A stretch of DNA of 64,000 nucleotides, taken from contig NZ_CP014989.1 in assembly GCF_001685415.1 (NCBI RefSeq), forward strand, positions 2,232,001 to 2,296,000. Direction: 5' to 3'. A program made the position numbers and the translations under genes. Source of the DNA: Serinicoccus hydrothermalis. GTDB lineage: Bacteria > Actinomycetota > Actinomycetes > Actinomycetales > Dermatophilaceae. Position 1 is the first letter of the stretch; each line of letters starts with the position of its first letter. Below are positions 8,437 through 55,500 of this stretch, piece by piece. The notes under the pieces were generated by a model, which had not been told where the DNA came from, ran no database searches, and saw nothing but the letters and a program-made list of their open reading frames with translations.

Positions 8437-9543
8437 ATGAGTGACCTGACCGACCTGCTGGAGCGACACTGGAACGCGGGCACCGCGCCCGGGCTCGTCG
8501 CGGCCCTGGGGGATGCCGACGGGGCGCTCGAGGTCGCCGCCGTGGGCGAGCTGGCGCAGGACGCCGTCGTGCGGATCGCGTCGATGACCAAGCCGGTCCT
8601 CGCGGTCGCGACGCTCCGCCTCGTGGACGCGGGCGCGCTCGCCCTGGACGACCCGGTTGACCGCTGGCTGCCCGAGCTCGCCGACCGGCAGGTGCTGCGC
8701 ACGCCCGACGCGGCGCTCGACGACACCGTGCCCGCGACCGGGCCGATCACGCTGCGGCACCTGCTGACCTGCACCTCGGGCTACGGGATGATCCTCGCCG
8801 AGTCGCCGCTGCAGGAGGCGATGGAGGGCGCCGGGGCCGCGGCGGGCCCGGAGCCGCTCGCCCCGTCCTCGCAGGAGTGGCTGGACGCGCTCGCCGCCCT
8901 GCCGCTCGTGGGCCAGCCCGGCGAGGTCTGGCGATATCACCACTCCTTCGGCCTGCTCGGCATCATGCTGGAGCGCGCGGTCGGCCGGCCGCTCGGCGAG
9001 CACCTCGCAGAGGACCTGCTCGGGCCGCTGGGCATGCACGAGACGGGGTATGCCGTCCCGCCCGCCGACGCGCACCGGCTCCCTGCGGCATACCGCCGGC
9101 AGGAGGGCGGTGACCTGGTCGAGATCGAGCCGGCGGGTGCGGGGCACTACGTCGCCGACGAGGTCCGGGACCGGGCGCACGACGAGCTGGTCTCGACGGT
9201 GCGCGACTACGCCGCCTTCGCCCGGATGCTCGCCGCCGGTGGTGTGCACGAGGGGGATCAGGTCGTGGCGCCCGAGCTGCTCGCGCAGATGCGGGTCGAC
9301 CAGGTGCCCGAGCGGGCCAAGGACCCGGGCAGCTTCTTCCCCGGCTTCTGGGAGGGCGCGGGATGGGGCTTCGGTGTGGCCGTCGAGAGCGGCGGCGAGC
9401 ACGCCGGGCGCTTCGGCTGGTCCGGCGGCCTCGGCACGGACTTCTGGGCCGACCCCGCCACCGGACGGTATGCCGTGATCCTCACCCAGGCGGAGATGGA
9501 CGAGCAGGTGATGCGGCTCTTCGCCGCCGGCCGGCAGCTCTGA
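8437..9543 (+). CDS. Serine hydrolase, beta-lactamase/esterase EstB type
   Basis: A 368-aa penicillin-binding-protein-like serine hydrolase (class C beta-lactamase fold). The S-x-x-K motif is SMTK at residues 49-52 within VVRIASMTKP; the Tyr motif appears as YHHS near 167-170 in place of Y-x-N; the third motif region is FGWSGGLGTDFW. No signal peptide is seen, so an intracellular esterase or peptidase is more likely than a periplasmic beta-lactamase. ATG 8437 follows GAGAGGGG at a good distance. Confidence 0.88.
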   Translation: MSDLTDLLERHWNAGTAPGLVAALGDADGALEVAAVGELAQDAVVRIASMTKPVLAVATLRLVDAGALALDDPVDRWLPELADRQVLRTPDAALDDTVPATGPITLRHLLTCTSGYGMILAESPLQEAMEGAGAAAGPEPLAPSSQEWLDALAALPLVGQPGEVWRYHHSFGLLGIMLERAVGRPLGEHLAEDLLGPLGMHETGYAVPPADAHRLPAAYRRQEGGDLVEIEPAGAGHYVADEVRDRAHDELVSTVRDYAAFARMLAAGGVHEGDQVVAPELLAQMRVDQVPERAKDPGSFFPGFWEGAGWGFGVAVESGGEHAGRFGWSGGLGTDFWADPATGRYAVILTQAEMDEQVMRLFAAGRQL

Positions 9544-9550
9544 GCGGGGC

Positions 9551-9973
9551 TCAGCCCTGGGCCACCCCGTAGACGTGGTCGACCGAGAGCCGGACGACCA
9601 GCCTCCGGTCGGCGACCATGGCCCGCCGGTAGTCGTCCCAGTCGGGGTGCTCGCCGTTCGCGTCACGGTAGAGCTGGACGAGGGACTCGACCGTCGGGTC
9701 GTCGGGCGCCGCTGCGACGGGCGACAGCTCGACGGTGCCCTGGGCGACGGCATACGACCAGCCGGAGGAGCTCGTCACGAACAGGCTCGAGCGCGGGTCC
9801 CGGCGCAGGTTGGCGACCTTGGCCCGCCCGTCGGTCGTGGAGACGCGCACCAGGGTCGCCTCGGGGTCGATGGCGTAGGTCACCATCGACAGCTGCGGCT
9901 GCCCGTCGCGCTTGATGCTCGTGAGGGCGCCGGTGCCGCCGGAGGTGAGGATCTCGCGCAGTGCTGGGTCCAT
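9551..9973 (-). CDS. PPOX-class F420/flavin-dependent enzyme
   Basis: A 140-aa split-barrel protein of the pyridoxamine-5-phosphate-oxidase-like superfamily. It shows the strand order GTGALTSIKRDGQPQLSMVT, then VRVSTTDGRAKVANLRRDPR, SLFVTS and GTVELSPVAA typical of actinobacterial F420-dependent family members with the C-terminal helix YRRAMVADRRLVVRLSVDHV. The start is ATG 9973 (MDPALREIL); an upstream extension encodes nothing family-like. It is convergent with the serine hydrolase and its stop is 8 bp away. Substrate unknown. Confidence 0.88.
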   Translation of the reverse strand: MDPALREILTSGGTGALTSIKRDGQPQLSMVTYAIDPEATLVRVSTTDGRAKVANLRRDPRSSLFVTSSSGWSYAVAQGTVELSPVAAAPDDPTVESLVQLYRDANGEHPDWDDYRRAMVADRRLVVRLSVDHVYGVAQG

Positions 9974-47574: not shown

Positions 47575-47600
47575 GCCGAGCGGCGCAGGCGCTGGAGTAG

Positions 47601-47795
47601 CATCGTCGCGTCGCGGTTCGACCCCCTCCGGAGGGTCGTCGCAAGAGGGAACCAGGTGCGAGTCCTGGACTGCCCCGCAGCGGTATGTGGGAACGAGCGC
47701 GTCACGAAAGCACTGGGCGGATGTGCCTGGGAAGCGAACGCCAGTAGGTGCCTTGCACGAGGCGAGCCCACGAGTCCGAAGACCTGCCGTGACCG
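47601..47795 (+). ncRNA. Cobalamin (B12) riboswitch aptamer
   Basis: The conserved core is visible in order: GGGAACCAGGTGCGAGTCCT beginning at 47647 (GGGAA...GGTG), then CTGCCCCGC, GGGAACGAGC, GCACTGGGCGG near 47710, CTGGGAAGCGAACGCCAGTA, and the B12 box AGTCCGAAGACCTGCC at 47773-47788. The P3 arm is the paired stretch around 47605-47645. A CAGGGCCCG/CGGGCCTGG hairpin at about 47796-47815, shortly before the ribosome-binding region, could be the expression platform. It precedes a B12-independent homocysteine methyltransferase, so B12 is expected to switch it off. Confidence 0.92.
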
Positions 47796-47846
47796 CAGGG
47801 CCCGTCCGGGCCTGGTGCCCGACGAGCTCGCGAGGGATGAGCACGG

Positions 47847-48932
47847 ATGACCGACACGCATACCCCCACCGACCCCACCACCACCCCTGCACCCGGCCTG
47901 GTCGAGCGCCTCGACCAGGGGCCGGTGATCTGCGCCGAGGGCTTCCTCTTCGAGCTCGAGCGGCGCGGCTACCTCACCGCCGGGGAGTTCGTCCCCGAGG
48001 TCGCCCTGGAGTTCCCCGACGCGCTGCGGGCGCTGCACCGTGACTTCCAACGCGCCGGCAGCGACATCGTGGAGGCGTTCACCTACAACGGCCACCGCGA
48101 GAAGATGCGGGTCATCGGCAAGGAGGAGCTGCTCGAGCCGCTCAACCGGGCCGCCCTGCAGATCGCCCGGTCCGTGGCCGACGAGAAGCCCGGCAACCTC
48201 GTGGCCGGCAACATCTCCAACAGCAACCTGTGGGACCCGAGCGACCCCGACGCCCAGCGCGAGGTGCGCTCGATGTTCGAGGAGATGGTCGGGTGGGCGG
48301 TCGAGGAGGGCGCCGACCTCATCATCGGCGAGACCTTCTACTACGCCGGTGAGGCGCAGGCCGCGCTGGAGATCGCCAAGGCCAGCGGGCTCCCCGTGGT
48401 CCTCACCGTCGCGCCCATGGCCGGCGAGCAGATGCGCGACGACGTGGGGATCGTCGAGCTCTGCCAGCGGCTGGAGCAGGGCGGCGCCGACGTCGTGGGC
48501 ATGAACTGCTTCCGCGGCCCGGCCACGATGCTGCCGTGGCTGCGGCAGATCCGGGAGGCCGTGAGCTGCCACGTCGCCGCGCTGCCGGTCCCCTACCGCA
48601 CCACGGACGCCGAGCCCACCTTCTTCAACCTCACCGACAACAACGGCGTGATGGTGCCCTCGCCGCACGGCCGCACCTTCCCGACCGCCCTGGACCCGCT
48701 GTCCTGCAACCGCTACGAGGTCGGGGCATTCGCCACCGAGGCCTTCGCGCTCGGCATCAACTACCTCGGGGTCTGCTGCGGTGCGTCCCCGATGCTCGTG
48801 CGCCAGGTCGCCGAGGCGGTCGGTCTGACCACAGAGGCCAGCCGGTTCTCGGAGAACATGCAGAACCACTTCATGTATGGCGACAACGTCCGGCTTCCCG
48901 AGCACATCAAGGCGCTCGGCGGGTCCGCGTGA
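47847..48932 (+). CDS. bhmT: Betaine-homocysteine S-methyltransferase-like enzyme
   Basis: A 361-aa homocysteine methyltransferase (TIM barrel) closest by eye to animal/marine-bacterial BHMT: ELERRGYLTAGEFVPEVALE, ALHRDFQRAGSDIVEAFTYN, IARSVADEKPGNLVAGNIS. Zinc-binding Cys are in VVGMNCFRGP and GVCCGASP (Cys-Cys), matching BHMT Cys217 and Cys299/300. It would remake methionine from homocysteine using betaine or another N- or S-methyl donor, without cobalamin. Upstream B12 riboswitch implies expression when B12 is scarce, as an alternative to MetH. The stop overlaps the next gene by GTGA. Confidence 0.85.
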   Translation: MTDTHTPTDPTTTPAPGLVERLDQGPVICAEGFLFELERRGYLTAGEFVPEVALEFPDALRALHRDFQRAGSDIVEAFTYNGHREKMRVIGKEELLEPLNRAALQIARSVADEKPGNLVAGNISNSNLWDPSDPDAQREVRSMFEEMVGWAVEEGADLIIGETFYYAGEAQAALEIAKASGLPVVLTVAPMAGEQMRDDVGIVELCQRLEQGGADVVGMNCFRGPATMLPWLRQIREAVSCHVAALPVPYRTTDAEPTFFNLTDNNGVMVPSPHGRTFPTALDPLSCNRYEVGAFATEAFALGINYLGVCCGASPMLVRQVAEAVGLTTEASRFSENMQNHFMYGDNVRLPEHIKALGGSA

Positions 48933-49441
48933 CGCCTGCCGGCAAGGCGCCGGAGGAGTCGCGGCTCACCCTGTCGCAGATCATGGGTGCCACCGACACC
49001 AACCTCCTCGGGACGGTGCACGGCGGTGTCCTCATGCGGCTGGCCGACTCGCTCGCCGGCGTCGTCACCGCACGTCACAGCGGTGGCCCGACCGTCACCG
49101 TGGCCATCGACGAGATGGTCTTCGTCACCCCGGTCCAGGTCGGCGACGTGCTGCACCTGCACTCCCAGGTCAACTGGGCGGGGACGAGCTCGATGGAGGC
49201 CGGGGTGCGGCTCATGGCCGACCGGTGGGACCGCACCGACCCGCCGATCCACGTGGCGAGCGCCTACCTCGTCTTCGTCGCGGTCGACGAGGAGGGCGGC
49301 TCGCGCCAGGTGCCTCCGCTGCTGCCGCAGACCGAGGAGGAGCGGCGACGCTTCCGGGAGGCGGAGATCCGGCGCTCGCACCGCCTCGCGCGCCGGGACG
49401 CCATCGTGAATTCGCGAGCGAACGACCCCGAGTCGGCGTAG
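48929..49441 (+). CDS. Acyl-CoA thioesterase, hotdog fold
   Basis: A 170-aa hotdog thioesterase of the YciA/BACH type: RLTLSQIMGATDTNLLGTVH then GGVLMRLADSLAGVVTARHS (catalytic-region HGG and Asp), PVQVGDVLHLHSQVNWAGTS, and the tail PQTEEERRRFREAEIRRSHR. It cleaves acyl-CoA esters of unspecified length. GTG 48929 overlaps the bhmT stop, so it is expected to share the B12-controlled transcript; a direct functional link to methionine synthesis is not obvious. Confidence 0.85.
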   Translation: MTPAGKAPEESRLTLSQIMGATDTNLLGTVHGGVLMRLADSLAGVVTARHSGGPTVTVAIDEMVFVTPVQVGDVLHLHSQVNWAGTSSMEAGVRLMADRWDRTDPPIHVASAYLVFVAVDEEGGSRQVPPLLPQTEEERRRFREAEIRRSHRLARRDAIVNSRANDPESA

Positions 49442-53575: not shown

Positions 53576-54811
53576 ATGTCACCCGGTCCCTTCCTGCTCG
53601 GCCTGTCGCTGGGCGGGCGCCGGGTCGTCGCGGTCGGCGGGGGAGCCGTGACCGTGCGACGCGTGCGCGACCTCCTCGCCGAGGGCGCCGTGGTCGAGGT
53701 CCTCGCACCGCAGGTCGCGCCCGAGCTCGCGGCGTGGGCGGAGCGCGGGGAGATCACCTGGACCCCACGCCGGTATGCCGGTGCCCCCGACCTCGCCGGC
53801 GCCTTCCTCGTGCACACCGCGACCGGCGACCCTGACACCGACTGCCGCGTCGCCGCGGACGCGGAGGCGGCGCAGACGTTCTGCGTCAACGCCGGTGACG
53901 CGGCGGCCGGCAGCGCCCAGGTCCCGGCCCGGGCCGTCGTGCCGACCCCCACCGGGGAGGTGCGGGTCGCGGTCCACGCCGGGGGCGACCCGGCCCGTGC
54001 CGCCGCCGTGCGCAGCGGGCTCGAGGAACACCTGACCAGCGGCGTCGTCAACCTGCGGGGCCGCCGCCCGCACGGCGGCTGGGTCGCGCTCGTCGGCGCC
54101 GGCCCCGGGGACGAGCAGCTGCTCACCCGCCGCGCCGCCACGCTGCTGGCCGCGGCCGACGTCGTCGTCACCGACCGGCTCGTGCCCCGCGCCCTCCTCG
54201 CCCGCCTCCCGGAGAGCACGCGCGTCGTCGACGTGGGCAAGTCGCCGCACCACCACCCCGTCCCGCAGCACGAGATCAACCGGATCCTCGTCGAGGAGGC
54301 GCTCCGGGGCCGGGGCGTCGTGCGCCTCAAGGGCGGGGACCCCTACGTGCTGGGCCGTGGCGGCGAGGAGCGGGCCGCCTGCGAGGCCATGGGTCTCGCC
54401 GTCGAGGTGGTGCCGGGGATCACCAGCGCGGTCTCGGTGCCGGCCGCGGCGGGCATCCCCGTCACCCACCGCGGCCTGGCCCGCGGCTTCACCGTCGTGA
54501 CCGGCCACGAGGAGCTGCCCGGCCTCCCGACCGGCGGCGACCACACCCTCGTCGTGCTCATGGGTGTCGCCGGGCTGCGCGAGACCGCCGCCCGGCTCGT
54601 CGAGGCGGGCCGGCCCGCGAGCTGCCCCGTCGGCATCGTCGAGAACGGCTGGACGCCGCAGCAGCGGGTCACCCTCGGCACGCTCGCCGACATCGCGGAC
54701 CGCGCCGAACGCGTCGGCGTCGCCTCGCCCGCCGTCGTGGTGGTCGGCGACGTCGTCACCCTCGCGCACGGGTGGCCGGCCCGGGCGGAGGGCGCCGGGG
54801 CGGTCGCGTGA
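53576..54811 (+). CDS. cobA: Siroheme synthase-type uroporphyrinogen-III methyltransferase fusion (CysG-like)
   Basis: A 411-aa bifunctional enzyme. Residues about 1-155: precorrin-2 dehydrogenase-like Rossmann domain (LGGRRVVAVGGGAVTVRRVR, VVEVLAPQVAPEL). Residues about 165-400: uroporphyrinogen-III C-methyltransferase with WVALVGAGPGDEQLLTRRAA, VVRLKGGDPYVLGRGGEERA, VVPGITSAVSVPAAAGIPVT, and LPGLPTGGDHTLVVLMGVAG. It makes precorrin-2/sirohydrochlorin from uroporphyrinogen III. Its stop overlaps the chelatase gene (GTGA). The siroheme user (nitrite or sulfite reductase) is not in the window. Confidence 0.93.
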   Translation: MSPGPFLLGLSLGGRRVVAVGGGAVTVRRVRDLLAEGAVVEVLAPQVAPELAAWAERGEITWTPRRYAGAPDLAGAFLVHTATGDPDTDCRVAADAEAAQTFCVNAGDAAAGSAQVPARAVVPTPTGEVRVAVHAGGDPARAAAVRSGLEEHLTSGVVNLRGRRPHGGWVALVGAGPGDEQLLTRRAATLLAAADVVVTDRLVPRALLARLPESTRVVDVGKSPHHHPVPQHEINRILVEEALRGRGVVRLKGGDPYVLGRGGEERAACEAMGLAVEVVPGITSAVSVPAAAGIPVTHRGLARGFTVVTGHEELPGLPTGGDHTLVVLMGVAGLRETAARLVEAGRPASCPVGIVENGWTPQQRVTLGTLADIADRAERVGVASPAVVVVGDVVTLAHGWPARAEGAGAVA

Positions 54812-55500
54812 CCCGGCCGCTCGTCGTCGCCGCGCACGGCACCGCGAGCGCCGAGGGACAGGCCGTCGTGCGGGCCTGCGCCGCCCGCGCGGGCGAGGTG
54901 CTGGGTATGCCCGCCCCGCCCGTCGTCGGCTTCGTCGACGTGTGCGGGCCGACGCTGGCGGAGGTGCTCGTCGGGCTGGAGGACCCGGTCGTCGTGCCCT
55001 TCTTCCTCTCCTCGGGGTACCACGTCAACCACGACGTGCCCGCGGCGCTCGCCGACGTGCCCGGCGCGACGGCGACCCCGGCGCTCGGGACCGCCGACGA
55101 GGTCGTGCAGGCCCTGGCCGAGCGGGTGCGCGAGACGTTGCCCGCGGGGGAGCCACCCGACGCCGTCCTCGTCCTCGGCGCCGGGAGCAGCGACGACGAC
55201 GCGCGGGCCGAGGTCGCGACGGTCGCCGAGCGGGTCGCGGAGCACCTCGGCTGCGCCGCCGGCACCGCCTTCCTCAGCGGTCCCGGCCCCCGCCCCGAGG
55301 AGGAGCTGGCCCGGCTGCGGGAGGACGGGCATACCCGGGTCGCGGTCGCCGCGCACCTGCTCTCGCCCGGCCACTTCCTCGACAAGGCGCACGCCGCCGC
55401 CGAGGCCGCCGGCGTCGCCCGGACCCGGCCGCTGGCCACCCACGACCTGCTCGCACGCCTCGTCGCCCGGCGCTACCGCGAGGCCGTCGCCGCGTCCTGA
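54808..55500 (+). CDS. sirB: Sirohydrochlorin chelatase (CbiX/SirB-like)
   Basis: A 230-aa CbiX-family ferrochelatase inserting Fe2+ (or Co2+) into sirohydrochlorin. Two repeats each carry a metal-binding His: LVVAAHGTASAEGQAVVRAC and FFLSSGYHVNHDVPAALADV in the first, and VAAHLLSPGHFLDKAHAAAE in the second (about 187-206). GTG 54808 overlaps the preceding cobA stop. Together the two genes complete siroheme synthesis. Confidence 0.9.
   Translation: MTRPLVVAAHGTASAEGQAVVRACAARAGEVLGMPAPPVVGFVDVCGPTLAEVLVGLEDPVVVPFFLSSGYHVNHDVPAALADVPGATATPALGTADEVVQALAERVRETLPAGEPPDAVLVLGAGSSDDDARAEVATVAERVAEHLGCAAGTAFLSGPGPRPEEELARLREDGHTRVAVAAHLLSPGHFLDKAHAAAEAAGVARTRPLATHDLLARLVARRYREAVAAS

What the first reader, a model, noticed from the sequence alone, without database searches (positions are those of the whole stretch)
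47601..48932. B12 riboswitch controlling a B12-independent betaine-homocysteine methyltransferase
An unmistakable cobalamin aptamer lies 50 bp upstream of a BHMT homologue with the zinc-binding Cys/Cys-Cys set. In many actinobacteria the B12 riboswitch controls metE; here a BHMT-type enzyme seems to take that backup role, so homocysteine methylation would switch to betaine (or a similar donor) when B12 is absent. Riboswitch control of BHMT is not something I know as established.
Basis: partly seen in the sequence, partly recalled or inferred. Interest (0 to 1): 0.72.

Follow-up and report, generated by a model that had tools for sequence, protein, structure and literature searches.

The report
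B12 switch on backup methionine enzyme
A marine actinobacterium in which no usual vitamin-B12-free methionine synthase was found carries a B12-sensing RNA switch directly in front of a betaine-homocysteine-methyltransferase-like gene, which probably makes methionine from other methyl donors when B12 runs short; the same gene family sits behind B12 switches in a few unrelated bacteria.

Summary
A strong cobalamin riboswitch (RF00174, 94.7 bits, E 2.7e-22; window 47597-47805) lies 41 nt upstream of a 361-aa homocysteine S-methyltransferase (47847-48932) closest to BHMT in sequence and predicted fold. The genome (Serinicoccus, one 3.6-Mb contig) has MetH, no detected MetE, and two riboswitches over the cut-off: this one and one before class I nrdA. 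The gene thus occupies metE's usual place among B12-repressed, B12-independent isozymes. Relatives support this: cobalamin riboswitches precede the same family in Austwickia, Piscicoccus and three Rhodobacterales; the trait needs at least four changes on a tree. In Thioclava a ribonucleotide reductase cluster with its own B12 riboswitch follows; in a Solirubrobacterales MAG one riboswitch precedes metE, an unassigned ORF and this gene. But only 6 of 80 related loci have an adjacent one, and five of eight Serinicoccus carriers lack it. The donor is unsettled: mammalian betaine-site Tyr77 is Asn, and NCBI's BHMT equivalog cut-off is missed. SAM-riboswitch control of bhmT is already known in SAR11; I found no report of B12 control. 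New variant of a known kind; function inferred, not measured.

The parts
47597..47805 (+). Cobalamin (B12) riboswitch aptamer
   Evidence: RF00174, 94.7 bits, E 2.7e-22, full length. In an alignment of ten aptamers it shares details with the genome's own nrdA aptamer that the Austwickia, Piscicoccus and Rhodobacterales ones lack (read by eye).
47806..47846 (+). Leader between aptamer and start codon, presumed expression platform; candidate ribosome-binding site GAGGG at 47832-47836. A possible L5-L13 pairing (47658-47662 with 47827-47831) is not better than chance.
   Evidence: Sequence read; the stretch CGACGAGCTCGCGAGGGATGAGCA is identical in G021 and G026; pairing test: 451 of 1000 shuffles as good. 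The ribosome-binding site is by eye.
47847..48932 (+). BHMT-like homocysteine S-methyltransferase, 361 aa, same family as the bhmT-like gene of a Pelagibacter-labelled MAG; zinc cysteines C221, C310, C311
   Evidence: PF02574 E 2.8e-36; PDB best sequence hits BHMT; AF2 model pLDDT 83.9 with the first 14 Foldseek PDB matches all BHMT; 68% identity to L179

Best explanation
The leader is a cobalamin-sensing off-switch on the mRNA of a B12-independent homocysteine methyltransferase. With enough B12, the aptamer binds cobalamin, expression of the BHMT-like enzyme falls, and MetH makes methionine from methyl-folate. With too little B12, the enzyme is made and methylates homocysteine directly from a small methylated donor (glycine betaine, or a relative such as DMSP), bypassing both B12 and folate. 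It stands in for metE, which was not found in this genome. Shown here: the riboswitch, the gene and its family, MetH present and MetE not detected, and recurrence of the pairing in other lineages. Inferred: that the switch is an off-switch, at which level it acts, that the protein makes methionine, and which donor it uses.
For: Riboswitch and gene. Predicted fold closest to BHMT, ahead of MetH and MmuM. Own genome: MetH in a 1277-aa frame; no PF01717, although the same search finds it in 10 of 14 named control genomes; the only other riboswitch over the cut-off precedes a class I NrdA (PRK06539, 1489.7 bits, cut-off 988). Relatives: the aptamer lies within about 200 nt upstream in G021, G026 (Serinicoccus), Austwickia and Piscicoccus, and about 560-570 nt upstream in Oceanicola, Thioclava and Vannielia, with a ~100-aa ORF between in Thioclava and Vannielia and a similar stretch in Oceanicola. 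In Thioclava a second cobalamin riboswitch, a 215-aa ORF and a ribonucleotide reductase large- and small-chain pair follow. In L113 one riboswitch precedes full-length metE, an unassigned ORF and this gene on one strand. SAH riboswitches precede it in Vannielia and an Azospirillaceae MAG, a SAM-V in a Pelagibacter-labelled MAG. Of 55 genomes with the gene, full-length MetE was found in 5 and neither that nor the MetH reactivation domain in 32. Of the 8 genomes with an adjacent riboswitch, 0 have a TIGR01371 match. The riboswitch trait needs at least 4 changes on the tree. Literature: B12 repression of metE through a riboswitch in mycobacteria (PMC8088520, passages); Phaeobacter Bmt makes methionine from DMSP and betaine in vitro without B12 or folate (PMC12366255, abstract and passages).
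Against: Mammalian betaine-site residues are not kept: Tyr77 aligns with Asn81 and Phe76 with Tyr80; both are fixed in 27 of 27 members of A4. The protein scores 76 against a cut-off of 338 for NCBI's BHMT equivalog. Few family members have the riboswitch: an adjacent one in 6 of the 80 loci kept (67 loci scanned, the other 13 through their genomes, which gave no match). Five of eight Serinicoccus carriers lack the aptamer although all have MetH, so B12 control is dispensable there. Riboswitch and MetH domain are not significantly associated among the 55 genomes (p 0.11). The expression-platform pairing I proposed is not better than chance. The genome has another S-methyl_trans protein (410437-411324) that could be the backup. 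Betaine or DMSP supply in this strain was not tested.
Confidence: 0.72

Rival explanations
1. The protein is a free-standing homocysteine module, like MtgE/Bmt of roseobacters and Sinorhizobium, that takes methyl groups from a separate corrinoid protein, and so is itself B12-dependent.
For: Same PF02574 family and fold as the MetH homocysteine domain; mammalian betaine residues missing, as reported for Sinorhizobium Bmt (PMC12478193, passages); two further B12-binding domains over the cut-off in the genome besides MetH.
Against: PRK07534 score 76 against 338. Of the 32 gene-bearing genomes with neither full-length MetE nor the MetH reactivation domain, 31 were searched for cobalamin riboswitches and 24 had none; several are MAGs, and corrinoid proteins were not searched for there. 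None of the four PF02310 matches of the own genome lies in the window. B12 repression of a B12-dependent enzyme would be illogical.
Confidence: 0.1
2. It is a homocysteine methyltransferase with another donor (S-methylmethionine or a sulfonium or ammonium osmolyte) whose main job is salvage or osmolyte breakdown, and B12 control only balances homocysteine use.
For: Aligned donor-site residues differ from BHMT; many of the 80 best relatives are from Halomonas, Chromohalobacter, Salinicola and their kin, halophiles by name and recall.
Against: Neighbours and leaders point to methionine supply: metE next door in L113, a Cys/Met-metabolism PLP enzyme downstream in L179, with its own SAM-V element, SAH riboswitches.
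Confidence: 0.13
3. The riboswitch is a relic or inserted element that no longer controls the gene.
For: Sister Serinicoccus (5 of 8 carriers) lack the aptamer yet keep flanking leader sequence; 74 of 80 related loci have no adjacent one.
Against: The aptamer scores 91.6-98.6 bits over the full model in own, G021, G026 and Austwickia and recurs in separate lineages.
Confidence: 0.05

Closest known systems
Cobalamin riboswitch on metE (Mycobacterium, Priestia megaterium)
   Same: B12 riboswitch before a B12-independent methionine-forming enzyme in a genome with MetH; repression of metE shown in M. smegmatis (PMC8088520, passages) and by a SAM-Cbl tandem leader of P. megaterium tested in B. subtilis (PMC9600662, passages).
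   Different: The controlled protein is an unrelated BHMT-like one, presumed folate-independent; MetE was not found in this genome.
SAM-II/SAM-V riboswitch before bhmT in Candidatus Pelagibacter (PMC2704228, passages)
   Same: Probably the same protein family: a Pelagibacter-labelled MAG protein is 68% identical, with SAM-V upstream. Riboswitch-controlled bhmT.
   Different: Ligand is SAM, not cobalamin; SAR11 lacks MetE and MetH (PMC12478193, passages), whereas here MetH is present and B12 is sensed.
Cobalamin riboswitch on the B12-independent ribonucleotide reductase genes of actinobacteria (recalled for Streptomyces; own nrdA)
   Same: Isozyme-replacement logic; in this genome the two aptamers resemble each other.
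   Different: Different enzyme and pathway.
Bmt/MtgE of Phaeobacter, Ruegeria, Sinorhizobium (PMC12366255 and PMC12478193, passages)
   Same: Homocysteine methyltransferase; the Phaeobacter enzyme uses betaine and DMSP in vitro.
   Different: Probably a different subfamily (PRK07534 cut-off not met; that these enzymes are PRK07534 members is recalled); part of a split MetH there; no riboswitch named before it in the passages read.
Mammalian BHMT (1lt8, 4m3p, 1umy)
   Same: Closest fold and sequence in the PDB, zinc cysteines kept.
   Different: 30-32% identity in the structural match; Tyr77 and Phe76 of the betaine site changed; the sequence match ends at residue 315 of the 406-residue human chain.

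Membership tests
Cobalamin riboswitch (RF00174) | Score above the curated cut-off over the full model | tested here: met
   94.7 against 31.5 bits, positions 1-189 of 189
Cobalamin riboswitch (RF00174) | Binds a corrinoid and changes expression | not testable with these tools
   Needs binding or reporter assay
BHMT (betaine-homocysteine S-methyltransferase) | PF02574 domain with zinc Cys and Cys-Cys | tested here: met
   E 2.8e-36; C221, C310, C311 invariant in 27 of 27; that these bind zinc follows from alignment with BHMT
BHMT (betaine-homocysteine S-methyltransferase) | Closest solved fold is BHMT | tested here: met
   First 14 PDB matches are BHMT
BHMT (betaine-homocysteine S-methyltransferase) | Betaine-site residues Phe76 and Tyr77 (roles from PMC3871600, passages) | tested here: not met
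   Tyr80 and Asn81 in the aligned places, fixed in 27 of 27. Two more distant relatives outside A4 (54-55% identity) do have Tyr in the second place. Trp44 to Phe, Tyr160 to Thr and Asp26 to Glu are also read from the alignment; their roles are recalled
BHMT (betaine-homocysteine S-methyltransferase) | NCBIfam equivalog PRK07534 cut-off | tested here: not met
   76 against 338 bits
BHMT (betaine-homocysteine S-methyltransferase) | Methyl transfer from betaine to homocysteine | not testable with these tools
   Enzyme assay needed
B12-repressed isozyme of a B12-dependent enzyme (as metE to MetH) | B12-dependent counterpart in the same genome | tested here: met
   MetH with homocysteine, B12-binding and reactivation domains in one 1277-aa frame
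B12-repressed isozyme of a B12-dependent enzyme (as metE to MetH) | No other enzyme fills the role | tested here: inconclusive
   No PF01717 and no TIGR01371, but a second S-methyl_trans protein exists at 410437
MetE (TIGR01371) | Meth_synt_1 and Meth_synt_2 domains | tested here: not met
   Only PF02574 found in the protein
Split-MetH homocysteine subunit (MtgE) | Corrinoid partner protein | tested here: inconclusive
   Two non-MetH B12-binding domains over the cut-off elsewhere in the genome, their proteins not identified

The most novel reading that the evidence does not exclude
B12 supply switches the source of methionine's methyl group from the folate pool to methylated osmolytes. A SAR11-type, folate- and B12-independent homocysteine methyltransferase has taken MetE's place and has been captured by cobalamin riboswitches several times (Serinicoccus, Dermatophilaceae, Rhodobacterales), in places beside ribonucleotide reductase genes or metE, and the aptamer was later lost in a Serinicoccus sub-clade.
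Probability: 0.45. Interest if true: 0.7.

Novelty: new variant of a known kind. Interest (0 to 1): 0.56.

Why it matters
If true, genome-based predictions of B12 dependence that look only for metE and metH would misjudge organisms that use this gene: such a strain would look B12-dependent for methionine but would have a B12-free escape that draws on osmolytes. It would also link B12 scarcity to betaine or DMSP use in marine and saline bacteria, and the aptamer-free sister species give a natural comparison for what B12 control is worth.

Tried and rejected
Thioesterase (4HBT) gene 48929-49441, overlapping the stop codon: considered as part of the unit. In the frames read downstream of nine loci it is seen in own and G021 only, not in the other seven, so left out.

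Third riboswitch-like hit in the genome (2350977-2351037, 23.8 bits, below the cut-off): too weak, not followed.

Kissing-loop (L5-L13) proof of a translational switch: the 5-base match is found in 451 of 1000 shuffles; not claimed.

Association of riboswitch with MetH among gene-bearing genomes: 5 of 8 riboswitch genomes and 19 of 55 overall have PF02965, Fisher p 0.11; not significant. The Rhodobacterales may have split MetH without that domain (from PMC12478193; not tested here).

Small Meth_synt_2 protein: a hit at E 0.001 in 1 of 9 gene-bearing and 24 of 27 other genomes of the family (Fisher p 4e-5; one of the 24 is below the family's cut-off). Not used as main evidence: the genomes are not independent and many scores lie near the cut-off.

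Prevalence in Thioclava's family: of 295 genomes only Thioclava itself matched at E 1e-100, so no frequency of the pairing could be given there.

Riboswitches of the relatives: of 25 strong riboswitch loci looked at, 15 are followed by proteins of one BLAST cluster whose starts resemble the own NrdA, 3 by a lipoprotein-like protein, 3 by the gene of this report; 3 stand alone, and the own nrdA locus was picked in a wrong frame. None of the 25 was seen to lead to a MetE-like protein, but only the first long frame was read.

Papers PMC12456013 and PMC8123684 hold both a cobalamin-riboswitch term and betaine; the passages shown do not link them. Structural comparison by VIA-align 2 was not available.

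Full report
1. Observation. cmscan of the window finds a single Rfam match over a gathering score: a complete cobalamin riboswitch aptamer at 47597-47805 on the + strand (94.7 bits, E 2.7e-22). The gene behind it starts at 47847 and ends at 48932; it is a 361-aa PF02574 protein. Sequence search of the PDB ranks rat and human BHMT first (165 bits), and so does a profile of 23 family members. An AlphaFold2 model from 27 sequences (pLDDT 83.9, pTM 0.85) matches BHMT in the first 14 PDB ranks (TM by query length 0.69-0.78, 30-32% identity), then MetH of Thermotoga, then others with MmuM from rank 31. The three zinc cysteines are invariant.

2. Whole-genome context. The window lies in a one-contig genome of 3.6 Mb. 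PF02574 occurs three times: in MetH (1277-aa frame), in the window gene, and in a 341-aa frame at 410437. PF01717, the catalytic domain of MetE, is not found, nor is TIGR01371. Over the cut-off there are two cobalamin riboswitches. The other, at 573474-573713, precedes an 868-aa ORF that passes the cut-off of the ribonucleotide reductase alpha model PRK06539 (1489.7 against 988 bits) and stays below the B12-dependent NrdJ model (381.8 against 399.95). The second target is thus probably also an enzyme that does not need B12. Whether NrdJ itself is present was not tested.

3. Relatives in the family. Of 58 genomes searched (own included), 9 carry the gene at 81% identity or more: 8 of one genus and Austwickia (Austwickia named through L130, which has the contig length and place of G032). 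The riboswitch is next to the gene in own, G021, G026 and Austwickia. It is not found in the loci of the other five, G011, G017, G028, G029 and G030, even at E up to 10. Those five keep leader sequence on both sides of where the aptamer would be: GGAGTAGCATCG on the 5' side in five of five, and CGACGAGCTCGCGAGG before the start codon in three of five. On the tree the five aptamer-free rows form a sister group (94/94) of the three with the aptamer (99/87; the rows for G030, G017 and G028 are L103-L105). Loss of the aptamer is my preferred reading; insertion in the other clade is not excluded. All eight have MetH.

4. Beyond the family. Fifty of those genomes were searched for riboswitches; 67 of the 80 loci were scanned by cmscan, and the other 13 lie in genomes where one search found no match. 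An adjacent cobalamin riboswitch, upstream on the same strand, was found in 6 of 80: Serinicoccus kebangsaanensis (the same as G026), Austwickia (again G032), Piscicoccus, Oceanicola sp. m2, Thioclava sp. JE_KL1 and Vannielia litorea. Two more loci hold one that is not adjacent: L113 (below) and L166, 3.8 kb away on the other strand. L098 (77% identity) and the two loci at 54-55%, L099 and L100, have none. In the three Rhodobacterales the aptamer ends 561-570 nt before the start codon; Thioclava and Vannielia have a ~100-aa ORF between, without a Pfam match, 55% identical over 74 aa. Vannielia also has an SAH riboswitch (41.1 bits) directly before the gene, as has an Azospirillaceae MAG (44.7 bits); Thioclava and Oceanicola show similar letters there but did not reach the cut-off. 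In Thioclava the gene is followed by a second cobalamin riboswitch, a 215-aa ORF and ribonucleotide reductase large and small chains. In the Solirubrobacterales MAG (L113) a cobalamin riboswitch at 1471-1648 is followed by full-length metE (984 bits), an ORF with no Pfam match that aligns weakly (36.6 bits) with a Meth_synt_2 protein of a relative, and then this gene, overlapping.

5. Independent capture. On a maximum-likelihood tree of 60 family members (53 of the 80 loci and 7 others) the riboswitch label needs at least four changes, counted on well supported branches. The Serinicoccus aptamers share details with the genome's own nrdA aptamer and differ from those of Austwickia and Piscicoccus and from the Rhodobacterales ones (by eye). 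Together this argues for repeated capture, though gain and loss cannot be told apart fully.

6. Who else makes methionine. In 55 gene-bearing genomes, full-length MetE was found in 5 (three over the TIGR01371 cut-off, two at 905-908 bits just under it) and the MetH reactivation domain PF02965 in 19; 32 have neither. Two of the 32, G451 and G485, have matches to the N-terminal part of MetE (150 and 232 bits), the first near a contig end, so they may hold a MetE in pieces; others have core-MetE-like matches to the C-terminal part. Of the 31 among them searched, 24 had no cobalamin riboswitch, Nesterenkonia and Brevibacterium genomes among them. Split MetH and core-MetE proteins would be missed by these two tests, and some genomes are MAGs, so 'sole methionine synthase' is not claimed. 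None of the 8 genomes with an adjacent riboswitch has a TIGR01371 match.

7. The donor. Phe76 and Tyr77, betaine-site residues of mammalian BHMT (PMC3871600, passages), align with Tyr80 and Asn81 here, fixed in 27 of 27 members of A4; the two relatives at 54-55% identity have Tyr in the second place. The PNAS paper on roseobacters (PMC12478193, passages) states that SAR11-type Bhmt keeps the residues essential for betaine binding. The Pelagibacter-labelled relative found here (L179, 68% identical, SAM-V upstream) does not have Tyr77. I cannot resolve this without that paper's supplement, which was not read. Phaeobacter Bmt uses DMSP and betaine in vitro without B12 or folate (PMC12366255, abstract and passages), so betaine is not excluded.

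8. What is known. Cobalamin riboswitches on isozymes of B12-dependent enzymes are a known class (PMC3766115, passages), and B12 repression of metE is shown in mycobacteria (PMC8088520, passages) and for the Priestia metE leader (PMC9600662, passages). SAM-type riboswitches before bhmT are known in Pelagibacter (PMC2704228, passages), and bhmT is listed in MetR and SahR regulons of Proteobacteria (PMC4239095, passages). In the held library no paper holds both 'cobalamin riboswitch' and 'betaine-homocysteine'. Other searches pairing riboswitch terms with bhmT, betaine or homocysteine methyltransferase showed no report of B12 control of bhmT in the titles and abstract openings listed: 15 of 15 papers, 20 of 41, 6 of 6, 10 of 14; one search was too broad to help (10 of 1,567). 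Most subscription papers and the regulon databases were not searched, so the absence is weak.

9. Verdict. The gene appears to work like metE in the B12 switch logic but is not MetE. It is BHMT-like by fold and zinc site, but fails two BHMT tests and should be called a BhmT-like homocysteine methyltransferase until assayed.

Noticed in passing
L012-L016 leaders: Five Serinicoccus species carry the gene without the aptamer but with matching leader sequence on both sides, a natural comparison with and without B12 control.
   Followed up: partly
L118:4222-10191: Thioclava sp. JE_KL1: two cobalamin riboswitches frame the bhmT-like gene, the second leading to a ribonucleotide reductase pair.
   Followed up: partly
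L113:1471-6047: Solirubrobacterales MAG: cobalamin riboswitch, metE, unassigned ORF and bhmT-like gene in a row, the last two overlapping.
   Followed up: partly
L118:4550-4852, L125:4547-4855: Related ~100-aa ORFs without a Pfam match between the cobalamin riboswitch and the bhmT-like gene in Thioclava and Vannielia.
   Followed up: partly
L057 and similar loci: Small Meth_synt_2 (core-MetE-like) proteins have hits in 24 of 27 family genomes without the bhmT-like gene and in 1 of 9 with it; possible functional exchange, phylogeny not corrected.
   Followed up: partly
G032, G467, G484: The MetH reactivation-domain match contains one in-frame TGA in Austwickia, Piscicoccus and an Azospirillaceae MAG; may be only an alignment running past the stop.
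   Followed up: no
L143:3134-3473 and 9163-9571: Nesterenkonia sp. F: four SAM riboswitches around the bhmT-like gene, one on its strand about 1.5 kb upstream.
   Followed up: no
window 53579-55500: Siroheme synthase-like protein (uroporphyrinogen-III methyltransferase plus NAD-binding part) followed by a CbiX-type protein; no link to the riboswitch seen.
   Followed up: no
L119, L132: MAGs labelled Desulfobulbaceae carry the gene at 76-79% identity; mis-binning is possible.
   Followed up: no
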